Source: Stichopus chloronotus
Lineage: Eukaryota; Echinodermata; Holothuroidea; Aspidochirotida; Stichopodidae
NCBI GenBank assembly: GCA_021234535.1
Contig: CM037832.1
Span: 9,245,575-9,309,574, forward strand
Length of the DNA stretch: 64,000 bases
Reading direction: 5' to 3'
A program made the position numbers and the translations under genes. Shown here one piece after another: positions 7,273-52,802 of this stretch; the first letter of the stretch is position 1, and every line of letters begins with the position of its first letter. A model generated the notes under the pieces. It saw only the letters and a list, made by a program, of their open reading frames with translations, searched no databases and was not told the origin of the DNA.

Positions 7273-7419
7273 CCGGTGACATGTTATCAAAGTTGAATGT
7301 CCCGCAGAGGATATCGAAGGCGACTATCTCCGTCAGGTCGTTGGGTCTTTGACTATGGACTTGAAATCGACATAGCCATTTGAGAATACTATCCATTTGC
7401 GTCGATCTGAAATCGTTAT
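7273..7419 (-). CDS. SMPD3: SMPD3-like coding exon 3
   Basis: This 147-bp exon has acceptor tctctgcag and donor CCGG|GTGAGT. It takes two bases to complete the codon left by exon 2, giving Asp462, and ends in phase 1. It encodes residues 462-510. The stretch MDSILKWLCRF followed by LTEIVAFDILCGTFNFDN matches the family segment with a helix and then VAFDVVCGDFNFDN. The Asp of the GDFN motif is replaced: the codons read GGG ACA TTC AAC, giving Gly-Thr-Phe-Asn with Thr502, while the Asn (504) is kept. The intron to exon 2 is about 6 kb and contains another candidate gene start. The C-terminal third of the family domain should follow at lower coordinates, but it was not convincingly found. Confidence 0.85.
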
Positions 7420-7605
7420 CTGCAGAGAAGGACGAACAATTAGAAATTATAACCGATCAAACACCAAAATGACGGTTTGTATGTACTGATGTTTGTGTGC
7501 GTGTGGGTGTGCGTGTGCGTGTATGCAAGAGGTTTTCCTTGTTGGGTACGACAATATGCGACGTGTAAGCATAATATGACAATTTGTGGATATTGGAGTG
7601 TCTGG

Positions 7606-7865
7606 ATGAATGCATATATACATAAATGGACAAGTAAAGAATAAGCGAGTAAAGCATACATGTATAGACAGTTGGGAACACATATGTGGACATGTACAGA
7701 TTACATATATGATGGACAAGAATGCATATATGGACATATGGATTACGAAAATGTAAAATAATGCATATATGGACATATGCTATGCCATACACATATGGAC
7801 AGATATGTATGGAACATATATACGGACAAGACTACGTAAATGGACATGTACATATGAAATACAAA
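7606..7865. repeat. Degenerate ACATATGGACAT minisatellite
   Basis: The words catatatggacatatg, acatatggacag and acatatatacggacaag recur about a dozen times with irregular spacing of 20 to 35 bases. The array lies in intron 2 of the SMPD3-like gene, close to exon 3, and is preceded at 7495-7525 by a (GT)n-rich run. Three overlapping open frames on the minus strand through this stretch are repeat translations, not genes. Confidence 0.7.
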
Positions 7866-8028
7866 ATACAAAAAACATGTGCAATACATATATGGAATTC
7901 ATTATTTCAGTTTGACATTTTGATGCTCCAGATAATCAGTTGTCGTCATAAACCACATTGGCACGTTTGTCCGAGTTGCAGATCGGGTGAACTAGTTCAC
8001 GGCGATATCGTTTCGATATTTAATCATC

Positions 8029-8195
8029 CTAACAGATATTCTGCATTAAACTCAAATACGAAAGTTCTGAAATGAAACATGATGATACAATGTCTCGGTT
8101 TAAATATAATTTCTCTGTAACTTTTTCTTTAAATATGGTATATCTTTCATCATCACTAGGATCGTATTTAACATTTAAATTTAAAGTTAGATACC
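8029..8195 (-). CDS. Possible second exon of the nested membrane protein
   Basis: A 3' splice site (gaattctctcccag) opens an exon whose first two bases complete the codon left by the exon at 9819-9915. The frame is then open for 54 codons to TAG at 8029. It contains the charged segment VKYDPSDDERYTIFKEKV and then TEKLYLNRDIV. Joined, the two exons would give a protein of about 87 residues with one N-terminal membrane span. The phase match supports joining, but the low-complexity AT-rich coding and absence of any recognised domain leave it uncertain. The true gene could use a different downstream exon. Confidence 0.27.
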
Positions 8196-9818
8196 CTGGG
8201 AGAGAATTCATTCACCTTAACTAGAAGATCGGAACGTCCCCGAAAAGGGAGATTAACCCACAATAATTGACATCATGTTTAGTGTACAAGGAATCAAATA
8301 TAATTCTACACATCCCTTTAACTTGACTATATGTTACTTGTGTTGAATTTGGTTTGAAAAGTTGTTGTGTAAGTACACTTGGTGTAAATTTCCTGCACTG
8401 AAGCCTGTAGTGAGACTTGCTTATAAAATTAAATTAAGGTATTATGAGTGGAAAAAAAGTACGTATGGAAATCTTACCCTCTGAGTGACTAAATTCTGTA
8501 AATGTAGGTACATCTAAACCAATCTTCAATTTAATTTAGAAAGTTGAACATAACCGCAAGTATAAGTATGGAATTTGATCAACTTTGAGATTGAAAAGTT
8601 TGCCGGTCAAGGAGACATTTGTACACCTGATATTTTTAATATTTTAATCGGGATCAGTAGACGACTGACCGGAGTAACGTTTCGCACTCATGCTTTCGTT
8701 TGCAATCTGAATAAATACCACAGTACATTAATCCATTCATCTAAGGAGTGGAAAAAAAATGGACAGAAAGACTCGAAACGTTGTTCAACTTGTACGACTT
8801 TTGTGTCCTCTAGTTGAAACCGGGCCCTAGGTCTATGGTTTGATATTTTAAAATCCGATTCTAATTATACACTACTAAATTGTGAGCAATTTGATATCAG
8901 GTTGTCTAGTATTTGTTTCAATATTGTTGCTGGATGACGACCATTTTCTTTCATTCTTCCCTTGCTCTTCAACACATACACCCAGGTCTTTGGACAGATA
9001 AGGGTAGTACCTTTTCCCCCATCCTGTGTATATGCAGAAGTGATTTCTCATGGCATGAAAAAATGTGATTTCCTGACGATGGAATCATACATATGAAAAC
9101 GTGGTTGACAGCATATTATACAAAACGAGTCAATCATATTACCTCATACGAGAATAACGATTTATTGTTTAATCATCATTTTGAAAGTGATAATACTTTA
9201 TAACACTGAGAATAAACATGTGGCAACTTATACCATTCATGAGGGGATTCTTTTCTTATCCTTCAAATAACAACGTAAAAAACATTTTTAAAACTCGACA
9301 TTCTGAGAAGCGTATGTAGTTTTTGTCTGGCTAGTGTATAATTTTATTGCATCACATAACACACTGTGGAATAGATTCCTTTGGACAATAGGTTAGACGA
9401 TAGCAGCGTTCCTCCTCTTACACTAAAGCTGAAAGAATCTTTTCCCAGATATAATATGATGATTGAAGTAAACAGATTTGGAACTTGTTTTATCGAAGTA
9501 TATCAGAGAGATCTTTTGTACACCTACAGCGAGTTTCCCATTGAACCAAGAAATAAGATGTTTGTATATTGCAGTATAGCTCTTCTTATTGCATATCATT
9601 TGTGATAGTTTTAATTGTTCACCAAATGTATCTCCTCTCAGCTCTGTTGGGCTTTCACAGGACATACATATGTTATTCGACAACACTATTAATGGTACGT
9701 AAATGACATCATAAATAGTATCCATTTCTTAAAATTATGTCTTCACGATATGCTATAACTTCTTAGTTGTTATACAAACTCGTTAGTCTTAGATCAATGT
9801 ATGCGAAAACCAGCTTAC

Positions 9819-9915
9819 CTCTCAGGGTAAATTTCAGTAACATGGCAAATACGCACAGGATAGTGTAACCCACAATGCCGATCTTACAATGCCAAACTTT
9901 TCCTGCTTTGCACAT
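9819..9915 (-). CDS. N-terminal exon of an unrecognised type II membrane protein
   Basis: The minus strand opens with ATG at 9915 and reads 32 codons plus one base to a strong donor (GAGAG|GTAAGC). The peptide starts MCKAGKVWHCK and runs straight into a hydrophobic span, IGIVGYTILCVFAMLL, then KFTLR. A short basic cytoplasmic head followed directly by one membrane span is the usual start of a Golgi type II enzyme such as a sulfotransferase or glycosyltransferase, but the family cannot be named from this exon. It sits inside intron 2 of the SMPD3-like gene on the same strand, so it would be a nested gene or mark a separate overlapping unit. Too short for normal ORF calling; judged by membrane topology and donor quality. 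Confidence 0.4.
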
Positions 9916-12900
9916 ATGTGTGTCAGTATTTGTGTATGCATCTATGTATGAATATATAAAATGGAGTCCTTTCTCTCTTTATTTATACATGGTCCTCCGC
10001 CTATCACCTATTGTTTAAAAATAAACGTCACTGATACATGCGAACTCGAAAGGACATTTACATACTACGCAACGCTATTTGTTTACACTAGGGCATTGGA
10101 TTCGTCTTATGAAGATGACTACCTACAAGTCAATACCCTCTTTGATATAAACTCCCTCTCATTCTGTTGCAACCACAGGTTAAACTAACCAATGCATGGA
10201 AAGCCAGTATTAATTACAGTATTTAAATTAGTTGCTGAGAGTGACAACAAAAGAAAGCAGGCCAAAATGGGGAGTCATTTGGAAAATAATAACACGCAGA
10301 TTTGAAGTTGGTCTGAAATTGACTCTTCAAATTTGCAGGAATGCACGACGTATACCGTTGAGGTTATCTTGTGACTATGTCATTAATTAATGTGAAGAAC
10401 AACTAAGGCAAAAAGATTGGATTATAACTGTCTTAGATGTCCTTTTTATTTATCCCCGTGTGACGTGGACGGATCTTGAGTGAATGTGTCTCTGTGCATT
10501 ACAAACAAGGCATGCTCACTGAGACGTGTGTGCACTGAAGGTTGTCATTAGAAAGGCGTGAAATAATTATCAAAGCAAAGGTGTTCTGTGTTTGTTTACA
10601 GTATATTTTGAGACACGTAGCGAAATAAACTTATCGACTTTTTTAATTTTTGGTTTATTACTCTCAAAGCTACACTGTGGGTAAAGTGTAAATGGATTTA
10701 AAGAACGCTAGGTATAAATAGAGACAACGTAAATTTAAGAATATGAAGATGTACATAGATGTACATACATGTTGATTGAATGTATTAAAGAATCTGAATT
10801 GTAAGGTTAGTTTCTTTTAAAGCCTCCTTAGGTTTTTTTTCTCTTTCATTTTTTGAGAAGGTAATGTCATTTAGCATTTTTATTGTTTTGTCACTGAACA
10901 TCCAGTGATCTCCAATGGTGCAATAATGTCGATGGCCTTTTCTTTTGAATTCTAAAATCTAATGTACCCTGTTTTACGCTCATGCCATAATTTCATTTAC
11001 TTCTCCTTGCCTAACATGTGGACTTCAATTTCCAAACACGTTGTTATTCGTGACCGCCCGACCGCCCCTTGACGTGAAATGACTATATGAATTCACATGT
11101 CATTCATATCGAACAAAGTCTCGACGACAACTTTTTGTACGGAGTAAGGCTTGGAATCACTCCTACACAGGAATTAGTTACATATTTTACCTACAGATAG
11201 TGAACTCCACATCCTGGTCACGTATGGCGTCAGCCTTGGTCGAACAATCACATGACAAGGAAACTCACTGAATGTTGACTAATAATAAGACTATAAATCA
11301 GCTTGTTATGTATGGTTTGTAACTTTGTGTCAAGAAATTTAGCGTACCTGGTCACTTGTCGTTGAGTATCGAATTGTTTCAATGTGTTCGTTATCCTTGG
11401 TTTTCATTGTTTCAATTTATTATGTACATTTTTTTTTTGTTTGGCAATAAAATCAAATCATGTGTCATATTCGTAGGATTTCCATTTTTTTCTTCGTAAA
11501 TTCGAGCCTGTACCTTTGTCAAGATCTCATTATTGTTATAGTGTTTGCAAAAGAGTTGCTCAAATCAAAGTAATCTGTACCAGTAATTTGAAAGGCCCGA
11601 TGAAATTTTTACAAACACCGGATGTCGATTTAGTCCATTATTGTACTTTGCAGTTACAAGTACACAGGCAAAGAAATAGAACATACTGATATTAACTGCA
11701 TGAGAAAGCTATCCTCTTTCAAAATGTCATTTTGTTATATTTCGAAATGGTCACCACTTCATCTTCAGGTACTTCAACTTAAATTCCGATGGGTTTTAAG
11801 GCATCCATCATGAGCTATCTGTGAACGTCTGTTGTTGACATGTAAATGATTACGATCTCCAAAGAGATTCAATCGACTTTAATTTCAAAGCAACTTATTC
11901 TTTGTAAAATCGTAAACGAAGGGGCACTTCTGAAGCGTTTGTATTATTAATTTCATATGAAAAAGCCCAAAGAAGACAACCTTGTTTGGCCCCGAGAATG
12001 CAGAACAACGGTGCCAGTCCAGAGATGCTGACTCAGCAGATAAACTTAAATATTTAAAAAGCAGAACGGTGTGAAAGGAAACAACGCGATACAATCAGGT
12101 TTACTCTTATTTGAAAGCACACCATGTTATAAGTACTGTCTACACAGCATGTATGGGTGTGTGTGTAAGTGTGTGTATCTTTGCCTATCTCAAGTAGATG
12201 AGATGAGAGAACATCGCTACGCATGTCAAACGAAATGGAAATATCACGTTAACTACGTTATAGACGTTGCATTGATTAAATAGTTTATTAGAATTCCATA
12301 ACATGCAGGGATATACCATAGCTTTTCGTTATTCATAAGAGCAAAAGTGATTGAAGAACATTTTTGTGGCCAACATGAAATTTATTTCAAAGATGACTAT
12401 CAATGCATACATTTTCTTTCGGGTTGTGTATATTTGAGCAATGGATCTTTCCGTGCATGCCACTGCTGGTAACCCAACGTATAATTTTCGGCATATTTCA
12501 TCTACTGCAGGTTTCATGGTGTAGATCGCATCTTAAGTCTTGCTATTTTTACCAAAAATTTTTACTTTCTTTTTCGAAATAACACACTGACGTTGTCATT
12601 ATGTTTTTGCGAGGGAAATCAGCTACGAGCTCAACATAATGTGTTGCTCTTGTATTGCAATAATAAGATTCACTGTGGTGTGGTAAAGTCAACAGTCTGA
12701 TACCGCAAAATAAGTCAACAGCTACAAAAGGTGGCTAATGCGTCTATTTATAAAACGTAAACTTTTATTGTTTTATCAAACAATTACAATATACAGCTAG
12801 CTGATATTTTCAGTCCTAGGCAGACCTAATCACGTACCTAACCAGCTACCAAACGTTTAAGGAGTGTACATCAATTTACAATAACTACTGAATATTTGCC

Positions 12901-13410
12901 GTCTTTACAAATTAATGGTTTAAGGTTGCACAATACCTTGAAAGCTGGAAGAAGTGGTTGCCCCATAAATATATCTGGGTTTTCAGTTTGAATGACCATA
13001 AAAAAGCTTAAAATATAATGCATCCCTCTACTTAGAGACTACGTGGTCGTTGTGTATACTGCAGATACCAATAATTATACTCATTTCGGCCCAGTGAGAG
13101 TCTTAAGTGGCGGTCAGCTACATATATACAATGCATAGCATGTCAATTTCCAACATTCCACAGTGCATTATACATAAGATAGGTGTCCTCGTTAAACTCA
13201 TGCGCTACTTCTTCCCAAATACCAAGACAGTATTCAGCTTCTCACGTTCCTGCTGAGATGATGCCCTCACTGGAGTGAAGATGCTGTATCCAATAAAGTT
13301 AATCAGAGTGAATCCAACAAACTTTAAATGAAAAGACAAAAAGAAAAGACGAAACATCACCCACGATCATAGTCACACTTGTTGACTAAGAAGTAATAAA
13401 CTAGATTTAC

Positions 13411-13486
13411 CTTGCTCTGAATCTAACTGGGTTACTGCTATGTAGCCAACAATCGGGTTACCTTCCTCTGTTCTTCCCACGAGGAC
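13411..13486 (-). CDS. SMPD3: SMPD3-like coding exon 2
   Basis: This 76-bp exon was found by reading the minus strand downstream of exon 1. It is bounded by ttactag at its 3' splice site and CAAG|GTAAAT at its donor. It starts in phase 0, exactly what exon 1 leaves, and ends in phase 1. The translation reads VLVGRTEEGNPIVGYIAVTQ and then LDSEQ, residues 437-461 of the joined model. It aligns with the SMPD3 block around IVGYIACTHL. The family's Thr-His-Leu histidine, a catalytic residue in the DNase I-like fold, is Gln456 here. Length, phase and position in the family all fit, so the exon assignment is strong even though the residue is unusual. Confidence 0.85.
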
Positions 13487-16400
13487 CTAGTAAAAAGGGA
13501 AAAAAAAAATCAAAATCAGAGAAAACATGAGAAACATGAACCTCCATCGGCTCCTGCTGGCTTTTGTCGGATGGATTTAAGGCTTTACTTGGATGATAAC
13601 GTCACCAAAATGCACAAGAAGTCATCATTATGAACATCCTAGAAAAACGCGTTTGTCTCTCTATGTCCGCAGCAGAGAAACTGGGAGCATGGGAGAAGAA
13701 GGAGAGGACTTGAGACAGACTGTGCAAAGTAAATACTGTATGGCGACAAGTAGAAGGTAGGAGGTACTGTTGGTATGTGTATGTGGGGGGGGGGGGGAGC
13801 TGTTGACTAAGTGACAGAGAGTCAATCGAGTCAATCCAACTGTGTCTTTTACCTCAATATTGAATTATACAGGTGATATGCACTACTACTATGTACTACT
13901 AAAGAATAGTCTTTTTCGCTAGCTGCACCTCCCTGTGGTTTGCACGATTCCATTCACATGTACAGTCTATCCAATTATCAGCACAGCACTGCAAAAGAAA
14001 AACCGTTTAGTCCTTTTGTGAAAGAGACATAATACTGTGTCTGATGGGAAAACTTTTACAATTTTCGAACATGTCGTTTTCGTAACTGTCTATTTTTTTC
14101 TTTTATTTATCCAAATGTGTTTTGGGTATTTCTCGCACGTTCTAGAAAGTTCATGGAAAAATACGTTGATTTGGAAGTGACCTTTTAGTGAGACGAGCCT
14201 TTCTTAACGTTCAATAAATCTTTCTGGGTTAATCTCATCAAAGCTGGATCGACGCTTTGTACCAAAATTCCTCTAATTGAATCTCTCTCGGTTGATATAG
14301 TCAACAAACTCAGACTATAAGAGGTAAAAAACTTATCAGTCCTTCACGAGAGCATCAATGTCTAAGTGATCATTAAAGGAACCTACAACGAAGAGCCCTA
14401 CAAAGACAAGCCCTAACGTCTGTTTGCCGTTTAAATGGATTTTGTACTCTAAGTATTAAACCACTTCCACCTAGACGGCTTTATTCAGTAAAGCCGTTCA
14501 AAAACACCAATAGTTTTTGAGTCAACGTTATCACGGGGACCGAATCTTTAATCTTTCCAGGTCTTGAGATGAAGACAAACATTCACAACATCAAATGCAT
14601 TAACCAGTTATACTTTTTAGTGAAAGTATATAAATAATATATCGCTTTAAGTCATGGTGTCATTGAACACAAGACCGTACACAAATGAACCTACGCAGCC
14701 AGGTCCCTTCGAAATTGGCTGAAGTAAATCACGCGTCTTGGGAATCCATGGTTACTGTTTTAATTCTGCTTCTCTATCTTTTTACCTTCCATTTGATGAA
14801 AGATGCCCCTCATTAAGAGATTGACCGAACCTTTTCGTAGGAAGGATTTGAAATTTTGAAATCTAACCAGAGGCTGAAGGAGGGAAAGCTATATAGGGTT
14901 AAGATAGATTGAACGGTGAGGGGAATTTCTTTCCCTCTTCGCCGATAGGCCGCCTCTGATTGCTTTTAGGGCGACATCTTCTGAGAAGTGAAATTTGAAT
15001 ATTCATTTAAGTCATATGGCTCTGTCAGTCGCACCTCGAACGTGAATACGTAGTAGACAGTATTCAAACGTGCGGATTTTACGACAAATGTTAACTGTGT
15101 AATAGTATCTGTTACATGTTTTAGTTTGCACACCTAATGCTCTGTGTGGTAACATGCTTATTAGGTCAAGAGTAAAATATTTAGTAAAATATTTCGTTAC
15201 TTGCAAGGTATTATTCTGTCGTTGTATGATTTCTAGTTACAAATTTAAGATAAAAAAATAACTACCTAGTTCACCAAAAACATGCTTGCTAAAATTACTC
15301 TTACACTTTAATCATGTTTAGGGCTTCTTTTTGTTTCTTTTTAACAGTGCAGACCGTTCTTCTTTTTGTCCACTGTTGACCATACGAAACCAATTGGGGA
15401 TGGTAGAGGACTTAACTCAAATGTGAACCAACTTGACAAATGCATTTTAGTGAACTCATAAACAAATAAATGCTCAAAGACTGACAGTAATAACGATATG
15501 CCCCTTACAACGAGAAGTACAAATTCTATTACATTCTGAATAATGTATCTGTCCTTTCTCAACAGGAATGAAGTGGTTTACTTGAATTGAATGGTCTTTA
15601 TTTATCACCGAGAAACGATGTTATATGTTCCAGATACCATCAGCTTCGGTCAAGTTTTTTAGTATATTTATGATTATCTAGCGGATGAAAATTACTGCAC
15701 TAAACATTTAAATCTTAAAGGAGGATAGGGAGTTGTGGAATACATCTTACGTAACGTTTTGCACTTTTTTCTCCAAATCGAGTAGAAGCATACCTGTTTA
15801 ACGTATTGGTAATAAAAAAAATTATCTCCCAAGACACATTTTGTCAGAGAACGCCCCAGTATAGAGACAAACCGTTAATATTTGTATTTTCCTTACATTG
15901 TGGCTCGTAAGATAATATTAATGAGCATGTCTTGTATGCCCCCCCCCCCCCTATCTTGAACATGGAATGTTGTTTGGTCGAAGGTTATCACTGTTTACCT
16001 GGAGTCTGCAGGTAGACATTAATGGCTTTCAATCAACAACATTCTTTCTGAAAAGATAAGGCGAGGAATAAAACACATATTCATGAATATCAGCGGGCAA
16101 CAACATAAGAAAATTTCAAAAATTAACCATTTTTTCCTCTCTAGTGGGGCGCTCTCAAAAAAAAAAAATTGTCATTAGCAGATTATTTTTACAACAAATA
16201 AGTTACATAGATATGCTTCTAGTCGATTTACAGGAAAAAAGCAAAAGGCTAAGTAAAATGTATTTTACAACTCCCTATCCTACTTTGATGTACAAATATT
16301 TCTTTTCGATGTATTAGAACAATTTGCAGGGTGAAATAGCCCCCTGCCCCTCCCACGAAACTTATTTTGAAAAATATCTTGCATATGTCCTAAAAAGCCT

Positions 16401-16977
16401 AGCAATTTTGCTTTCAAGTTTTGCCATGACAAAAATGCTGGTAGAATGTGGTTTCTTGACATCAAATACGATTAGAAAAAGACTGTGACGGTAATAGCAT
16501 CTTTATGCGTTAATTGCCTAGGGGTTAAAGACACACCTCGTAATACTTGCAATGAAACATTTTTCCTTGGGAGGGGGAGGGACCAAACGCCATATGTACT
16601 CCATCCTCTACCCTTATTCTGTCATTGAGGCTATGTTGAACTACGTTTTCCACTGCACCTTTATTCAAACATAGAACGAAAAGTTTTACTCTCCCTTTAA
16701 GCTTTTATTGACCCACGTGACAAATTTGTCTGGTGACAATTCACCTTTGCAATTTTTCTTATTTTCCCAGATTTTCATTTTTGTCTTTCTATATTAATCA
16801 ATTTATTGACCAGCTTGGGGACAAAAGATTGAAATGGAAACGAAGAATGACTTTAATCTATACTGTCCTCTTAGTCGACTAATGGAGCCCTTTTTGACCT
16901 CATTTTTTTTCTTTCTTTAGTGAAAGTCCATCTTCAATTTATCGACTAAAAGCAGAGGGAACATTTCATATACTCAC
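13487..16977. other. Intron 1 of the SMPD3-like gene
   Basis: The intron lies between coding exons 1 and 2 on the minus strand. It contains a G13 run at 13785-13797 and a C13 run at 15939-15951. No further exon or element was recognised. Confidence 0.6.
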
Positions 16978-18285
16978 CTTGACGATCAGAAGACCAATAG
17001 AGCGATAGCAATCGAATTTATGTTCCTCGTGGAAGTTATGAAAATCTACGTCCACGATTGGGTATCGACTCGCGAAAATGAGACCACTGTTTAGGAAATA
17101 ATGGTTCACCTTCCACGAATTATAGCCTATATCGTAGACTATGTAGCTGTAACACTCGTGCAGCACGGAGACCAGTTTATTAGTCGCCCTGAAGTCGAAT
17201 GCCTCCGTGATGCAGACGAAGTCCAACCCAGGAGGAAACGACGTGGTGACCCCATGATCCTGAGGGGTGAACGATTTTTCCTTGATGGAGACTTGACTCC
17301 CGATGTAAGAAGCACCTTTCTTGAAAGTTGTGGACTGGCTGGTGTAGTGGGACGACAACGTAGAAGACGCGCTTGCATATATCCTCTGTCGTTCAAGTAC
17401 TGTGTTTGGATACGAGCCGTCAGACTCCGGTGTGGAAGGTGTCGGAGAGTGGGAACCTTGAACCACGTCCGGTATGAGGCCATCTTGAGATACGCTCAAC
17501 GGGCTCTTACGAACTTTTCCAGAGGTCGAAGGTTTGTTGTGTCGAGCTTCGCTGCTTCCGACGGTGGAGAACAAGGGTCGCTGCACTTTCTGAAACGTGT
17601 ATTCGTTACAGCGTTCCCCTTCGCCAGTTTCGCTAAATTCGCCGTCGGACGGGGTCAGAACTTCCTCAATCTCCGTGTGGGACGCCAAATGACTCACATT
17701 TTGAGGAGGCAAAAATATCGAAGAAGTGGCTACCTCTCTGTTTAGGAGGGGAGTACAAGCCTCTCCGTCAGACGGGGTTCTTATAAAGACTTGAGGGTTA
17801 GGATGTATCTGAGAGAACGCTACTCTTTCCCCTATTTTGCGTGCCCTAGTTTGAACATTTCTGAGATTTTCTTGAATTGAAATAGCTTCCGGTAGTAGTT
17901 TTGTGTCTATCAGGGCGACGCGAAAGAAATGCTTTAATGTCAGATCCGTCCATAGAGTAGTATTGACATTCACTCTGAAGTAATTCTCTTTGAAGGAATA
18001 CTTATAAGGTAATTTCGACTTAGATAAATACCATTTAATAAATACCCCGGCCAGTGCGAGGGGCCAAAAGATCATCAGACATACAAAATGTATTGGCACG
18101 AAGAACAAAATGGAAACGAAGAAATATATGGCGTTGAAGGCATCCTTTTGTTTCGTAGTAATCGTCAGAGATAGGAAGAGACAGACGACTTGATTGAAAG
18201 GCCACGTCCATAAAAGCACCAAATACTCCGCGATCGTGTAGGCTTGGCCCTGCCATGGCGAAGGGAATGGGTTTTGATAAAGCAT
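16978..18285 (-). CDS. SMPD3: Neutral sphingomyelinase-2 (SMPD3)-like protein, coding exon 1
   Basis: This exon encodes the first 436 residues of an nSMase2-family protein. Enzymes of this family hydrolyse sphingomyelin to ceramide and phosphocholine at the inner face of plasma membrane and Golgi. Seen directly: residues about 18-40 and 52-86 are two hydrophobic segments like the N-terminal membrane hairpins of the family, followed by PYKYSF, which parallels the family's PYIYS. Residues 125-160 (IDTKLLPE, TRARKIGERV) match the start of the DNase I-like catalytic domain. Residues 165-350 form a Ser/Pro-rich insert, as in vertebrate SMPD3. Residues 353-436 (GLDFVCITEAFD, LNSGLIFASRYPI) carry the second conserved block with Glu361. 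The Met at 18285 is used because it lies four bases inside a 3' splice site (tttctttgtag, exon edge 18289) and aligns with the family start. The exon ends AAG|GTGAGT at 16978 in phase 0. Oddities: the metal-binding Asn appears as Asp127, and the Cys cluster palmitoylated in mammals is not evident. Homology is by recognition, not by search. Confidence 0.9.
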
Positions 18286-18289
18286 GTCG

Positions 18290-21200
18290 CTACAAAGAAA
18301 TGAAAACGAACCTCACATTCGTTGATGAGATGACCTCATTGTCCTATACATAGAATAAGAAAAAAAATAAAGCAAAGAAATGTATGAATAAACAGTTGTA
18401 CGTTACTATACTTAGTAAATTAATATAGATCACAAGTGGCACATCAGCGCATGAAAACAGGTTAAGTGGGAGAGTGTCAGGAGAGAAATATAGCACTTCC
18501 CGATAGCCAGACAAAAAGGAGTTCCGTTTTGCTTATTTATCCTTATTCTTTGGGGACACTTCAATGTTGCCGCTTTCCTCAGTTTGCAATCCCTTTCGAT
18601 AATTCCGCAAGAGTACGCAATTTTTTTTTAATTACTTTTGTACCGTAATTAAAACGGATGGGGATGTACGTGTGTATTTGACAAAAAAAGCATGAACCAG
18701 AAATAAACTGCGAATCAATCCCCACGTGGGATGACTACATGCTGAAGAAATAGGTTTCAATTAAATTAGAATGCCTCATTGTCTTCGACTGCTAGCCTGG
18801 AATCCACGGATAAAGGGGAACGATTATAGAAAATAAAGTTCAACCTCCTCTTTATTGTACTCAACCTGTGCAAACACGCAATGTCTAACATGAAGAAAGG
18901 TGTTTCGAACTGCATCTTTGAAAAAGTTTGAAGAGTGAAATCCACTCTTTAATTTATTTAGATGAAGCACTCTCTCGCTCAACGGAAGAAAAAAAGTGTA
19001 ATTAAGGAATTGATTTAATGACGAGACTGTTCGAAAAAAGTTACATTGTTTAAGAACTTAATGAGCATGACGTTTCCCTCATTTAAAGAAATAAGAGAAA
19101 AGAGTGGTCACTTGAGCCTCTCTGAAAGATGGAATTCCCACTCTATCCACATCTAGAATTTCTAGAAAATCTAGGAGCTCATCATCTGAAAGGGAACACA
19201 CCGAAAAAGGCTTCTGCATTGTTTCAAAGTTTCTTTTTGATATATCTTAATGGTCTATAATACACACTATTGACTTATTAATATAGCCACACACCCGGTC
19301 ATTTCTAACCCACCTTTGGTCCCCTATACCACCTGACCCTCAGCCCAACCAACATACACACGTATTAGTTAATGCAGTGATGTACATATCCCCATCTTTC
19401 ATTAGAATAATTACATCTCGAAATAACAAAACGATCTTGCAATTCGTTTTCATTTTTATTTTATCCCTTCCCATCAATTGAAAAAAATACGCCTGTGTTT
19501 GTGTCCAAGTTAACGGAAGGTCGGGGTTGTACCTCTTTAAGGTAGATCATCCTCCCAATATTAACGATGGCTGTCACATAACTTATTCTGGCATTTTATG
19601 TTAAGCTCAAGTTGTGCCACACAACATCATGTCTTTTTGGTGTTTTTAATTAGTTTATCTGTTGCTGCTATGAACATTTTGTATCATCCTCAGAAGAACA
19701 TTAAATTATGTCACACTTTCACGCTGGCACACTGTAATAGTGATGTGAGTACCAGGAGTATTGATATGAGAGACATCTCGTAATCATGTTAGTTACGTTA
19801 CGTTTATTTTAAGTATGGTTTTCCCCTTTTATCCGCCAATTGTTCCTCTAGCATCTTGAGGTAAAGTTATACTTTAAAAAAAAAAAATGCACTTATACCC
19901 ATTGACACTTGTTATATGCTAGTCTTTAACTGTCGTTTTCGTTGGATTTGAATCATTTATAAATCTTTAGCAGTCAGTGTATTGACAACACGTTTGATAC
20001 GAAAATCAAATGATTATTAAACGTCTTTCGTTATCTAACCTACACATTTCTTCACGGTGGTTTTTACGTAAACCTAGGCGTAACAGTACCATAACTAATA
20101 TGCATGAAGAAGTATACAACCTCTACTGACAATTCAGGTACTTTGCTTGCCCGAGTTGTTCGTTACATACAGCGTTTGGAGACGGAGAAACTACTGATAC
20201 TCAGGTTTAGCCTTGCAATAAGCGAGGGTAAATAGCGTAAGATCTGCGACCTACATTAATCTTTGGCTCTCTTAAGGCCATGTTTGCTCTCGGGAGCTCT
20301 TCCGAGGATAATGATTTCGTTCAACCAGTGCGACTCATATGTTTGCTATAATGATTAACCATTTAGCACATGAAAAGCTCGATGATGCGTTGGCTGTTAC
20401 ACCTTCAAGGGATTCACAACACACACACACACACACACGCTCTTGCTCTCTCTCTCTCTCTCTGAGAGCCCGTTAATGGAATCCAGTCGTTCGTTGAATC
20501 TGGCATCTTTCAATTGACTTGGCTACAATAGTAAGCTATGTAAACCAGCGATGGTAGGAAGAGGGATCAGTATCTAAACCATCGGTGGTGGGGATGAGGA
20601 TTGATTTTGTCTTGGTACCTGAAGACATTTGGGTCTCCGATCATAGGAGACATAGCGTGTCACAGCATGTAGCAGATCTTTAACTGCATGTTTGTAATAG
20701 CATGACAGGCACATCACCTGAAATATATAGTGTATATTAGTCCAGCAATGATTCAAAAATGTGCATTCAACAACAAAACTCTCCATGTAGAGGTATCGTT
20801 CACCCCAGTTGTCAATTGTAAAGTATGGCGTGTATATATATATATATACATATATATACATATATATATAATATTTATTATTATAATGACTTATGGTTCG
20901 TTATGGGACTGTCAATACAATGACACGCACCATATTGCAATGGCACTTTTTTTTTAAATTTATTGTCAGATTGCGTTACATTGTCGGCATCCCCAAAGCC
21001 ATAAGTTTTAATTCACTGTCTACCTTTGGAATTGGTCTCTGTTTGGGATGTGTGTGATAAAAGAGAGTTTGCAACATCCATCGTAATATTTTTGCAAATC
21101 ATACGGATTCTTGACATACTTTAAATGTTTGTTACATACTGTCATCTTATCAGTTACTCAATTTAATTTGACACGCAAACCTGGTGCGATTGATAATTTA

Positions 21201-48220: not shown

Positions 48221-49475
48221 GTGTACAACTCTTCCTAAAGTATGTAAGTTGTAAAAAAAATTAAGTTGTTAAAAATTGTAATTATGTAAGTTTGCTTGTA
48301 ACGTGAGAGGTAGGGTTGTTTGATTTGTGTCGTTTCATCGATACTTTGTCACTTCTACAGACTATAGGTACAGTGTTTACAGTTTACCCAGTATGCTACT
48401 ATGTGACAATGTAGCAGTGTTCGCATCAAGAAATTGAACCTGTGAGGGAAATTACTCTATAGAAAAATTTTGGGGTGTCACTTGGTAAAGCTTCTATTGC
48501 AATTTATTGTGGGTATGTATAATATGTAACTGTGACGTGAGCTGTGTACAGAATTTGCTGGGTTTTTGAGTATTGCGCAAATATTGACAAGTCTTATATC
48601 GGTAATATTGATATACCACCACTGCTTAACCAGCTCTCTAAAATCCTGGTGAGTTTTGAGTTGTACTGTACATGTGCAGTACTGAAGTAGACCCAGTAGA
48701 TCAGTTTAGAATACAATAATAGGCTATATTAATGTGATCATGAGTGGATCAGTACCATGAGCCCATCACTGCATTTTAAATGTAGACGTGATAAACCTGC
48801 AAAACCCAAACATTCCACAAACATCTCAAATGTCATGAAAACCAAGATATATACAGTATTATGTCGATTTTTGAGTGTATTGGAAAAAGAGCTGAAAAAG
48901 ATCTTTTGGAACCTGCCGAAAAGTATTACAAATGTTAGCTAACATGGTGAGTCATATTGCAAGTAGCATATTTCCAAAGTCATTATCTGAGAAATGGAAA
49001 ACTGCTGTGTGTAAAGCAGACACGAACATACTGTGGGGAGCATTATAAGGCAGAGTGGAAGTTACCAAAGAATGGAAGTAACAAATTTCAAACTGCAGAC
49101 CTTTAGAGGGTTCTGAAAACCCAAGCAGTGTTACTACATCATACAGATTGTAATTTCTTTACAGTGCTGTGCTTTCGTTTGTTGCTGTTTTGCATGAAAC
49201 ATTTGCTTCACAGTACTAATACCAATTCTAGTAAAATTCATTGGAACTGTTTCTCTCAGACATCCAGTTGTTTTTAATGAAAACAGAAGAGGGTTGTTAC
49301 TGTTGAAAGGCTCAATTGCTGCAGTGGTGTAGAAACTAGAAATTTCTGTACCCAATAGTGTGCATTAATACCAAAAGTGTTCACTCTCTTCATATGAATA
49401 AGTGTGTCAACTGTTTCTATTTTTCTCGATTGCAGATGAGTATTTTTCTCCTCTGGAAAGTGAGAATGTGCCAAG

Positions 49476-50941
49476 ATGGGTGACAAGGAAGTAAAAAGTA
49501 AGAAAGGGTTTATGTCCCGCTTGTCTTCTTTTAGAAAGAAGAAATCTTCATCAAAGCATGGTAGCGTGACAAGCCTGAAAACCGGCTCTGGTGACAGTGT
49601 TGCCAGAGGTGAAGATGGGAGAAAAATGCTAACCGACATTGATCGAAGGAGTAAGGGAAGCAGTTATGTGTCGTCCTCTCAGAACAGTCTAGAGGGCATA
49701 AATGGACGTACTCGTTCCACCTCTGAACTCATAGCAGGTTATGAGAAGAAGCTAAGTATTGTTAAGGATGACAGCAGACCCACTGCACAGGCATCAAAGA
49801 GAAGTTCTGCCACTAACTCTACCTCTTCTCAGGAATCTGAAAGTAGCTGGAGAGTTACAGCTGGGGTCAGTGCAAATGCTGAAAGTGTGAATGTCAAAGG
49901 TCATGGTCAGACCACTGCCCAGCCCGCTTTTACTCATCAAAGTGGTGTGAAACCTTATCGAAGCATATTCACTGATGTCACCAAAAGTGAAGGCATCGTG
50001 TTGAATAGTCAGGAAAAGACAGAGAGCACCACTCAGACGAACTTTTCACAAGTAGACCACGGGGAGGACGACATAGCTAGGCTGGTCAAAGTCCAGTCCT
50101 CAAGAACCCCTGAGACAAAAAGGGCCCATCTGTCCATTGCCAGACAAAACATTGAAGCCATCAGCAATTCCAATTACAGGCCACTTGTCGGGAAAGAAAC
50201 GTTTATTGGCCCTGATCCAATCACCCCAGGAAAAGGGGTCGAAGAATCCAGACTGAGATTCCGCAGTACATCCACACCGATGCCAAAAAGTTCAGAGGTG
50301 GTGGTCGAGCCAACTACTTCACCCATAAGTACCAGTAATGATTTAGTTCCCTCTCATGTACCACACACCAGTGAGAGGGAGCAAGTACAAAATGTAAGGG
50401 AAATTGAGACTTCCTTCCCTCAGTCAAGCAGTGATAGTAGGAGAGAGGGAAATGCAAGCAGTGTTACGAATCTGCACGGATCCAAGAGAACAGAAAGAGA
50501 TATATGGACTAAACAAGAACCTAGTTCAGATAACAAGATACCTGTCAACTTGCTGGAGGTAAACAAAGGAAGCAATATGACATTTACCAAGACTCCTTTA
50601 CCCCATAATACTTCTATGCCAGGTCACCAGACGAGGGAGCAGACCCCAACTACGATTGTCAATCGCACCGTTGTGGTCGAGAAAGGTAGGATGAGAACAC
50701 CATCCAAAGACTTAGCCGGCCGGACATTTTCTGTAGAGTCTAATCTCGCGGACTCGCTCTGCTCCGACGATCTCATGTGTGATTCTAAGTTTACGGGGTT
50801 AGAAGAAACCACATTCGCAGACAGTGATACCACCATCGAGGCTCACGTCAGGCCGATCAGAGATGCCGATAGAAACAAACCTCGTAACCAGTGGAGGAAA
50901 GGAAGTGAGGGCGACAGCATTTCATCGTCTTTACCATCATC
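49476..50941 (+). CDS. CCSER1: CCSER (FAM190) coiled-coil serine-rich protein, main coding exon
   Basis: This exon encodes the first 488 residues and two bases of codon 489. The start MGDKEVKSKKGFMSRLSSFR matches the family N-terminus (vertebrate CCSER1 begins MGD with SRLPIFRR shortly after), a basic amphipathic stretch. A long Ser/Thr-rich disordered middle follows, with many SSS runs and Arg/Lys-Ser sites. Near residues 425-445 the acidic motif DSLCSDDLMCDSKFTGLEE parallels the CCSER motif around SCxLDxDDLMLD. Vertebrate CCSER2 bundles microtubules, and CCSER1 is linked to cell division; the function here is inferred from family. The exon begins at 49436 after gattgcag, so the Met at 49476 has a 40-base leader within the exon. 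The donor is TCATC|GTGAGT at 50941/50942, phase 2; the in-frame TGA just beyond is intronic. It could equally be the single invertebrate ancestor of CCSER1 and CCSER2. Confidence 0.85.
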
Positions 50942-52802
50942 GTGAGTAATTTCTTCTTTTATTGCAAACTTCTTTGACTTAAATCAGATGGGTAGTACTG
51001 TAGCTATTACTTCAATACCTTGCAATGACATTAAAAGGTACATTGAAAGGCGTGTGCATCATACTGGCAAATACGAACAAACTTGTTGTTATGATGTTGA
51101 TGATACAGGAAAAGAATGAAACACAAGCACTGTTATTACTTTGTGGGACAAACTGTTTATTTAACAAACTTTGACTTCTGGCTATTAACCAGGTTCTTGA
51201 AATGTCCACTGATGTGACATGATACTAGGCCTGTATGTATATATCAACCCTAATCTTTATGATGTTGCTACCAAACAGGGTTGCTGGGTTTTTTTAATTT
51301 AATAAAAAACAACCATGATTTAAATAAAAAACAGTGATTGAAATCAAATACTGTAAATCAATCAATTTAAAGAGACTCATTGAGTTGCTTCACAAATTTC
51401 AGAATATTTTTTTAAAACCTGTTGGGCATCACTCATATGTTGATGTTAAATGGCTAAACTAAGAGATTCTGAACATCTCAAACACAACTGAAGCAACTAT
51501 GATAGGGTAATTATCAATCAAACTCACTTACTGAAAATCTGTGACCAGACACTTTTTATTGTAATGTGTAAACCATAGGCAATTCCTGTTGATAAAAATA
51601 GCACAATTTCTCACTTTTCTCCGTAACTGTACAAATAGATACACGAATAATGAGGCTAAATGGAAGTGTTGGCATGTAACGGTTCCTGTCAAACTTGCCA
51701 CAAAATTCAAGCATATCAACTCAATGAGCCATTGAAATCAGCCTAACTTGAAATCAAACAAACCCTGATACAAAACATTTAATCAGTGAGTATTCTAGTG
51801 ACTGGTCAGGGATTCACATTTTGTGGGAAGAGCTTCTGTAAACTGTACAGTACAGGTAGGTGAGAAAGTCGAAGCTGGACCATGTTGTGCCCTACTGTGC
51901 ATTGCTGTTGTCTGTTGGAAGTTCTGTGCATATACAGTACTGTACTTCCTATTGAACTGTTTTGTCTTTTTATAGAGCAAAAGTGTCCACTAGCCTCAAA
52001 TCGTAAATCCATGCCTTTTGATGCAACAGTTTAACTGTTACAGTACTGTATACTCTATGGGCAGAAGATACAGTAGCTGCTAAGAGGTTGAATTTAACCT
52101 GTACTCACTACAGTACCAAAATGTACACAGCTGCTACACTGAAAGGACAGGCTTACACTTACTGTACACTTACCTTGCTTTACGTTTACAGTATTTTGGT
52201 TATCTACAGTATGATATGACTTTTTATATGATACAATATCAATCAGTCATACAGTACCTCATATCATAGGGAATTATTCAGAGATGAGAATTGTCGTGGC
52301 AGCACAGATTGTCAAGTAGTCACCTGATGCTATATAGCAGTTTAGTTGCTTCAAACATTACAAAGTATAATTATGTACCCATATCTCTTCCTTCCATTAA
52401 CATGTCAATGAGAGTACAGTGTAAAATACAAACTGTGAGGCTCTAAGAGAGAGTGTGGTGTAAACTACAAACTACTGAAAGTGAAGGAGGCAGTAGGCAC
52501 TATAAAGTAGGCTCACTGACTGACTGTGTATTAATTAAAAATGGTGTTGTACAGTACATGAAGTAGTTAGACATTACTGTGCACTACTGTTACTGTGCAC
52601 TACTGTAATTGTTCTCAGAGAGTGAGGGAGGGTAAAATGAACCCTTATTTACTTAAAAATGTAGCATAATCTATTTTAGTGTATTTTTCCATAATTAACT
52701 GCAGGCAGTTTTGTAATGTGTCTACTACTCTATCATTGATGATTATGTTGATCTGCTTTTTTGATTTGTGGAGAAGGGCATTGAAGTCAGGGTACATCTT
52801 AA

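What the first reader, a model, noticed from the sequence alone, without database searches (positions are those of the whole stretch)
7273..18285. SMPD3-family protein that has lost several catalytic residues
Seen: across three phase-compatible exons the reading frame is intact. The family's catalytic His in Thr-His-Leu reads Gln456 (AVTQL), the Asp of GDFN reads Thr502 (CGTFN), and the N-terminal metal-binding Asn appears as Asp127. Glu361 and Asn504 are kept. In DNase I-like sphingomyelinases these His and Asp residues are needed for hydrolysis. An open frame of more than 500 codons with conserved membrane hairpins but a broken active site suggests a pseudoenzyme, perhaps a lipid-binding or regulatory paralogue, and is unusual for this family.
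Basis: partly seen in the sequence, partly recalled or inferred. Interest (0 to 1): 0.75.

Follow-up and report, generated by a model that had tools for sequence, protein, structure and literature searches.

The report
Echinoderm SMPD3 orthologue, catalytically broken
This gene, apparently from a sea cucumber, is the echinoderm version of the ceramide-producing enzyme SMPD3; it keeps the enzyme's overall layout but has lost half of the active-site positions examined, several of them shared with other echinoderms, so it probably works now as a membrane scaffold and not as an enzyme.

Summary
Exons 18285-16978, 13486-13411 and 7419-7273 (minus strand) join in frame with D127, E361, Q456, T502 and N504 as stated. 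Three further exons lie beyond the window edge; the model has six coding exons, GT-AG introns and 668 codons. Two more losses appear: the DK-switch Lys reads Ile430 and the Asp of Thr-Asp-His reads Arg625. Five of ten active-site or DK-switch positions are changed.

It is not a paralogue but the ambulacrarian orthologue of chordate SMPD3/SMPD5 (joint clade 100/99). Three family queries found no second SMPD3-like gene in the genome. Loss looks stepwise: His to Gln in 9 of 9 ambulacrarian rows with data; Asp510 lost in 6 of 6 echinoderm rows with data; Asn130 to Asp in starfish, urchin and sea-cucumber rows; Lys435 in both sea-cucumber rows. A C-terminal PDZ-type end (ETTV) is kept in 5 of 6 echinoderm rows. 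The one sphingomyelin-synthase-family gene found is SMSr-like. Best reading: an ancient membrane-bound pseudoenzyme, probably a scaffold or lipid sensor. Inactivity and function are inferred, not shown.

The parts
16978..18285 (-). Coding exon 1, ATG to Lys436: N-terminal hydrophobic segments, first part of the DNase I-like domain, low-confidence insert, second part with Glu361 and the DK-switch region
   Evidence: open frame, GT donor, orthologue alignment
13411..13486 (-). Coding exon 2, contains AVTQL
   Evidence: AG acceptor and GT donor, phase 0 to 1
7273..7419 (-). Coding exon 3, contains CGTFNFDN; the gene continues beyond window position 1 with exons 4-6 (C4:9235169-9235022, 9234398-9234251, 9231683-9231504)
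   Evidence: AG acceptor and GT donor; downstream exons
17905..17907 (-). Codon 127 GAC (Asp) at the place of Asn130
   Evidence: alignment and codon
17203..17205 (-). Codon 361 GAG (Glu), metal-binding Glu364 kept
   Evidence: alignment and codon
16996..16998 (-). Codon 430 ATT (Ile) at the place of DK-switch Lys435
   Evidence: alignment and codon
13427..13429 (-). Codon 456 CAG (Gln) at the place of the His of Thr-His-Leu
   Evidence: alignment and codon
7298..7300 (-). Codon 502 ACA (Thr) at the place of Asp510
   Evidence: alignment and codon

Best explanation
The gene is the orthologue of SMPD3 (neutral sphingomyelinase 2) in an echinoderm, apparently a sea cucumber. It encodes a complete protein that very probably can no longer hydrolyse sphingomyelin. 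Catalysis was dismantled in steps: His461 to Gln before hemichordates and echinoderms split, Asp510 to Asn in the echinoderm stem (later Thr), Asn130 to Asp in several classes, then Lys435 to Ile and Asp638 to Arg on the sea-cucumber side. Kept are the N-terminal hydrophobic segments, the DNase I-like domain and a C-terminal end of the class I PDZ-ligand type (ETTV). The most likely mode of action is a membrane-bound scaffold or lipid-headgroup sensor whose tail recruits a PDZ protein. Shown here: gene structure, residue losses, orthology, and strong conservation of the domain between two starfish that already lack three catalytic residues. Inferred: lack of activity, membrane and lipid binding, PDZ binding, scaffold role.
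For: Intact six-exon, 668-codon model. Five of ten key positions changed; in human SMPD2 alanine at N15, E49, D178, K116 or H272 abolished activity (PMC10682184, passages; equating these with SMPD3 positions is partly recalled). His to Gln in 9 of 9 ambulacrarian rows with data, Asp510 lost in 6 of 6 echinoderm rows with data. Orthology 100/99. Among columns invariant in 11 chosen intact rows, catalytic ones changed more often in the window (5 of 9 against 9 of 51, p 0.025) and in Asterias, Patiria and Diadema (3 of 9 against 2 of 51, p 0.021). Asterias and Patiria: domain 53/56, 85/94 and 185/211 identical, insert 112/171. Fold of the starfish orthologue matches 5UVG. ETTV in 5 of 6 echinoderm C-termini, ESTV in 2 of 2 hemichordate ones.
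Against: No activity, expression, PDZ or lipid-binding data. Glu364, Asp430, Asn512, Asp607 and His639 are kept, so a metal could still bind. In the column test four of eight rows (Amphiura, Antedon, Ptychodera, Glandiceps) are not significant, rows are related, and Ptychodera P0004 (Phe at 435) was left out of the reference set. Within sea cucumbers the domain is not visibly more conserved than the insert (3/52 and 3/96 against 5/168 differences; lean to variable columns p 0.068), and the sea-cucumber branch is long (0.93 against 0.35 for urchins). Sea cucumbers also lack a Cys that the other 11 rows shown keep near the N-terminus.
Confidence: 0.7

Rival explanations
1. Repurposed enzyme: the pocket still binds a metal through E364, N512, D607 and H639 and catalyses a different or slower reaction, for example on another ceramide phospholipid.
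For: Those residues are kept in the window gene and, where covered, in the other echinoderm rows. Starfish and other non-holothuroid echinoderm rows keep Lys435, Asp638 and His639. The only PF14360 gene found is SMSr-like, which would fit a substrate other than sphingomyelin (SMSr product recalled).
Against: Asp510 is Asn or Thr in 6 of 6 echinoderm rows with data, and alanine at D178 of SMPD2, recalled as the equivalent, abolished activity (PMC10682184, passages). The window also lost Lys435 and Asp638.
Confidence: 0.12
2. Decaying gene: the echinoderm protein had a role, but in sea cucumbers the gene is drifting towards a pseudogene.
For: Long branch, two further catalytic losses, loss of the N-terminal Cys, no contrast between domain and insert in the sea-cucumber pair. 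A neutral exon 1 at the divergence from P0001 stays open in 714 of 2000 simulations, so that pair alone proves nothing.
Against: 668 open codons, five introns with GT-AG ends, ETTV kept; neutral drift to 30% difference leaves an open frame in 0 of 100 simulations and to 10% in 6 of 200; 56% and 55% identity to Diadema in the two larger domain blocks.
Confidence: 0.12
3. Artefact: assembly errors, a wrong splice model or unseen alternative exons create the apparent losses.
For: Gln456, Thr502 and Arg625 have no second sea-cucumber sequence here, because P0001 covers exon 1 only. No RNA was available.
Against: P0001 has D127 and I430 too. Gln456 is shared by all nine ambulacrarian rows with data and loss of Asp510 by all six echinoderm rows with data. 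No alternative exon seen in 39.6 kb.
Confidence: 0.03

Closest known systems
Vertebrate SMPD3 / neutral sphingomyelinase 2 (PDB 5UVG)
   Same: Sequence match over the catalytic domain (E 6.1e-68); same clade; N-terminal hydrophobic segments and insert between the two halves of the domain; E364, D430, N512, D607, H639 kept
   Different: N130D, K435I, H461Q, D510T, D638R; ETTV end absent from the vertebrate rows
Asterias and Patiria 'SMPD3-like'/'SMPD5-like', Diadema and Amphiura 'SMPD3-like' (P0002, P0007, P0009, P0010)
   Same: Orthologues with Gln for His and without Asp510, ETTV end
   Different: Asn where the window has Thr at 510; Lys435 and Asp638 kept; Amphiura keeps Asn130
Hemichordate SMPD3-like (P0003, P0008, P0011)
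   Same: Gln for His; ESTV end in the two complete ones
   Different: Asp510, Asn130 and Lys435 kept; Glandiceps has His for Asn512
Amphioxus SMPD3 (P0013)
   Same: Sister-side orthologue with a PDZ-type end, ESAL
   Different: His, Asp510, Asn130, Lys435 and Asp638 all present; D430 reads Glu
Hemichordate SMPD5-like (P0004, P0038-P0041)
   Same: Same wider family
   Different: Separate clade; His and Asp510 intact, DK-switch Lys is Phe or Val

Membership tests
SMPD3/SMPD5 clade (as a gene lineage) | Groups with chordate SMPD3/5 apart from SMPD5-like of protostomes and hemichordates | tested here: met
   joint clade 100/99 in a 29-row tree; rows chosen from 71
SMPD3/SMPD5 clade (as a gene lineage) | DNase I-like domain close to 5UVG | tested here: met
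Neutral sphingomyelinase (as an enzyme) | Catalytic residues N130, E364, D510, N512, D607, D638, H639 and the His of Thr-His-Leu | tested here: not met
   4 of these 8 changed: N130D, H461Q, D510T, D638R
Neutral sphingomyelinase (as an enzyme) | DK switch D430/K435 | tested here: not met
   D kept, Lys reads Ile430; but Lys is also lost in eight SMPD5-like rows
Neutral sphingomyelinase (as an enzyme) | Hydrolyses sphingomyelin to ceramide | not testable with these tools
   needs an assay
Pseudoenzyme | Homologue of an enzyme with essential catalytic residues lost | tested here: met
   essentiality from SMPD2 mutants in PMC10682184 (passages)
Pseudoenzyme | Gene kept under selection after the loss | tested here: inconclusive
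   supported for starfish by identity blocks; not settled within sea cucumbers; no dN/dS
PDZ-ligand protein | Class I end, S/T-X-hydrophobic at the last residue (motif recalled) | tested here: met
   ETTV; 5 of 6 echinoderm and 2 of 2 hemichordate C-termini
PDZ-ligand protein | Binds a PDZ domain | not testable with these tools
   needs a binding test

The most novel reading that the evidence does not exclude
Echinoderms have taken apart the SMPD3 limb of the sphingomyelin-ceramide cycle: their only SMPD3/5 gene is an ancient pseudoenzyme kept as a PDZ-linked membrane scaffold, and this sea cucumber also appears to lack a true sphingomyelin synthase (only an SMSr-like gene was found), so functions that vertebrates tie to SMPD3 ceramide, such as exosome budding, must run without it.
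Probability: 0.3. Interest if true: 0.8.

Novelty: new variant of a known kind. Interest (0 to 1): 0.6.

Why it matters
SMPD3 has established roles in stress response, exosome biogenesis and bone mineralization (PMC10682184, passage). A phylum whose SMPD3 orthologue is catalytically broken yet conserved would separate the protein's structural role from its catalysis, with natural intermediates: Ptychodera with one of the ten positions changed, starfish with three, sea cucumber with five. It also predicts something testable about echinoderm sphingolipids.

Tried and rejected
Second SMPD3 copy: genome searches with the window protein, Asterias P0002, Ptychodera P0004 and amphioxus P0013 were answered. 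Besides this locus they gave two distant SMase-type ORFs on C15 (E 0.0096 and 0.144) and two stretches at E above 7 (C17, C12), all only at the loose limit of E 10. Queries P0031 and P0042 did not complete. SMPD2 and acid sphingomyelinase were not searched for. Pfam PF03372 over the genome scored 150 of 610 candidates, none of them this gene, many in long open frames that I take for retroelement endonucleases (recalled); not used.

Alternative exons: none seen in 39.6 kb. dN/dS: not possible with one species' DNA; identity blocks and simulations do not settle selection inside sea cucumbers.

Substrate loss: not settled. In PMC8228791, a review of starfish and sea-cucumber sphingolipids (term search only), 'sphingomyelin' occurs twice, neither time as a lipid of these animals. 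Term searches of PMC8708635 and PMC9865275 did not help. I recall sphingomyelin reported in sea-urchin eggs, which would count against a phylum-wide loss.

Print: searches for neutral sphingomyelinase or sphingomyelinase with pseudoenzyme (0 and 2 papers), SMPD3 with echinoderm (2), neutral sphingomyelinase with sea cucumber (13) and with sea urchin/SMPD3 (12 of 394 listed) showed no such report in the titles and abstract openings listed. Sphingomyelin in echinoderms and nSMase2 with PDZ (10 of 47 listed) were seen as listings. The library lacks most subscription papers.

Full report
What is there. On the minus strand, coding exon 1 (18285-16978, 436 codons), exon 2 (13486-13411) and exon 3 (7419-7273) join in frame at GT-AG junctions to 510 codons. 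The window is G000:C4:9245575-9309574 of a 719-Mb genome in 267 contigs. Searching that genome with the Asterias orthologue gave two further exons beyond the window's first base. I fetched that stretch, found the one between them and closed the model: exon 4 C4:9235169-9235022, exon 5 C4:9234398-9234251, exon 6 C4:9231683-9231504, phase-compatible, giving 668 codons and a stop. The ATG lies four bases after an acceptor-like TTTCATTTCTTTGTAG, so a non-coding 5' exon is likely (inference).

Active site. PMC9697135 (passages) lists the nSMase2 active site as Asn130, Glu364, Asp510, Asn512, Asp607, Asp638 and His639, plus the DK switch Asp430/Lys435. The His of Thr-His-Leu corresponds, I believe, to H136, named among the catalytic residues of SMPD2 (PMC10682184, passages); I number it H461 in SMPD3 by my own count. 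In the window gene the ten positions read D127, E361, T502, N504, D596, R625, H626, D425, I430 and Q456: 5 of 10 changed. The alignment to 5uvg_A agrees for the five changes. In human SMPD2, alanine at N15, E49, D178, K116 or H272 abolished activity and D111A left 1% (PMC10682184, passages); I saw no mutant of H136 there. Equating D178 with Asp510 and H272 with His639 is recalled.

Relatives. Two searches and a third with a hemichordate SMPD5-like protein gave 70 proteins, all aligned with the window protein (71 rows). At the His position 10 of 71 rows read Gln, 52 read His and 9 have no homologous residue (they end earlier, run into intron-derived sequence, or lack the exon). The 10 are all 9 ambulacrarian rows with data (six echinoderm, three hemichordate) plus one limpet, Patella caerulea. 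At Asp510, 6 of 71 lack Asp (all six echinoderm rows with data: five Asn, Thr in the window), 57 read Asp and 8 have no data. Asn130 is Asp in 7 rows: the window, P0001, two starfish, Diadema and two unnamed rows that group with Diadema; brittle-star, crinoid and hemichordate rows read Asn. Lys435 is Ile only in the window and P0001; eight SMPD5-like rows read Phe, Val, Leu or Gln. Asp638 is Arg in the window; P0056 shows Arg too, but Tyr at the next column, so its end is not clearly homologous.

Tree. With 29 rows chosen from 71 (fragments and near-duplicate vertebrates left out), the nine ambulacrarian proteins form one clade (100/99), beside chordate SMPD3/SMPD5 (92/91) within a joint clade (100/99), apart from hemichordate, amphioxus and protostome SMPD5-like proteins. 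Inside, the crinoid branches first, starfish pair with brittle star, and the window gene pairs with the urchin (94/84; 85/80 in the 26-row tree).

Order of loss, read by eye on that tree: His461 to Gln before hemichordates and echinoderms parted; Asp510 to Asn in the echinoderm stem; Asn130 to Asp in starfish and in the urchin and sea-cucumber line, with brittle stars keeping Asn, so either twice or with a reversal; Lys435 to Ile, Thr at 510 and Asp638 to Arg on the sea-cucumber line. P0001 confirms only exon-1 changes (Asn130, Lys435).

Constraint. Between the two starfish the domain is 53/56, 85/94 and 185/211 identical while the insert is 112/171, although both already lack His461, Asp510 and Asn130. 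Of 60 columns invariant in 11 chosen intact rows, nine are catalytic. The window changed 5 of 9 of these against 9 of 51 others (p 0.025); Asterias, Patiria and Diadema 3 of 9 against 2 of 51 (p 0.021); Amphiura, Antedon, Ptychodera and Glandiceps are not significant (p 0.158, 0.218, 1, 0.158). The rows are related, so the tests are not independent, and Ptychodera P0004 was left out of the reference set. Within sea cucumbers the evidence is weaker: 20 substitutions in 436 codons against P0001, spread 9/120, 3/52, 5/168 and 3/96 over anchor, domain, insert and domain, with a weak lean to variable columns (p 0.068). P0001 also has two extra in-frame residues (compare). A neutral exon 1 at that divergence stays open in 714 of 2000 simulations; 668 codons stay open in 6 of 200 at 10% difference and in 0 of 100 at 30%. 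The sea-cucumber stem branch is about 2.7 times the urchins' (0.93 against 0.35).

Rest of the pathway. Genome searches with P0002, P0004 and P0013 found no second SMPD3-like gene. P0004 also touched two ORFs on C15 (27% and 30% identity, E 0.0096 and 0.144) that look like secreted SMase-C-type enzymes; the longer keeps GTHLQ, AGDLN and ADH motifs, the shorter open frame ends before the last motif. So another kind of sphingomyelinase may remain. None of the 37 hits to the SMPD5-like query is named as an echinoderm, though ten rows carry no name. The family PF14360, which I recall as that of sphingomyelin synthases, gave two matches about 1 kb apart on C16. The one tested aligns to human sphingomyelin synthase-related protein 1 (E 1.1e-43). 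That this protein makes ceramide phosphoethanolamine is recalled, and whether the search would have caught a true synthase in this genome was not controlled.

Verdict. Papers were seen as listings or passages only; I read none in full.

Noticed in passing
window 49464-50945, + strand: Uninterrupted 493-codon frame, Ser/Thr-rich, with a start MGDKEVKSKKGF; no Pfam match at E up to 0.1.
   Followed up: partly
P0053 (Patella caerulea): A limpet SMPD5-like protein has the same His to Gln change with the other nine positions of the mollusc pattern kept, apparently independent.
   Followed up: no
[quoted passage not shown]
   Followed up: no
P0011 (Glandiceps talaboti): This hemichordate orthologue has also changed Asn512 to His.
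   Followed up: no
G000:C16:1665777-1666994 (L025, L026): The only PF14360 matches in the genome, about 1 kb apart; the one tested is closest to human sphingomyelin synthase-related protein 1.
   Followed up: partly
G000:C15:3047707-3048099 and 3056856-3057260 (L021, L023): Two ORFs about 9 kb apart resembling secreted SMase-C-type enzymes.
   Followed up: partly
window 18286-18305, - strand: Acceptor-like TTTCATTTCTTTGTAG ends four bases before the ATG, suggesting a non-coding 5' exon upstream.
   Followed up: no
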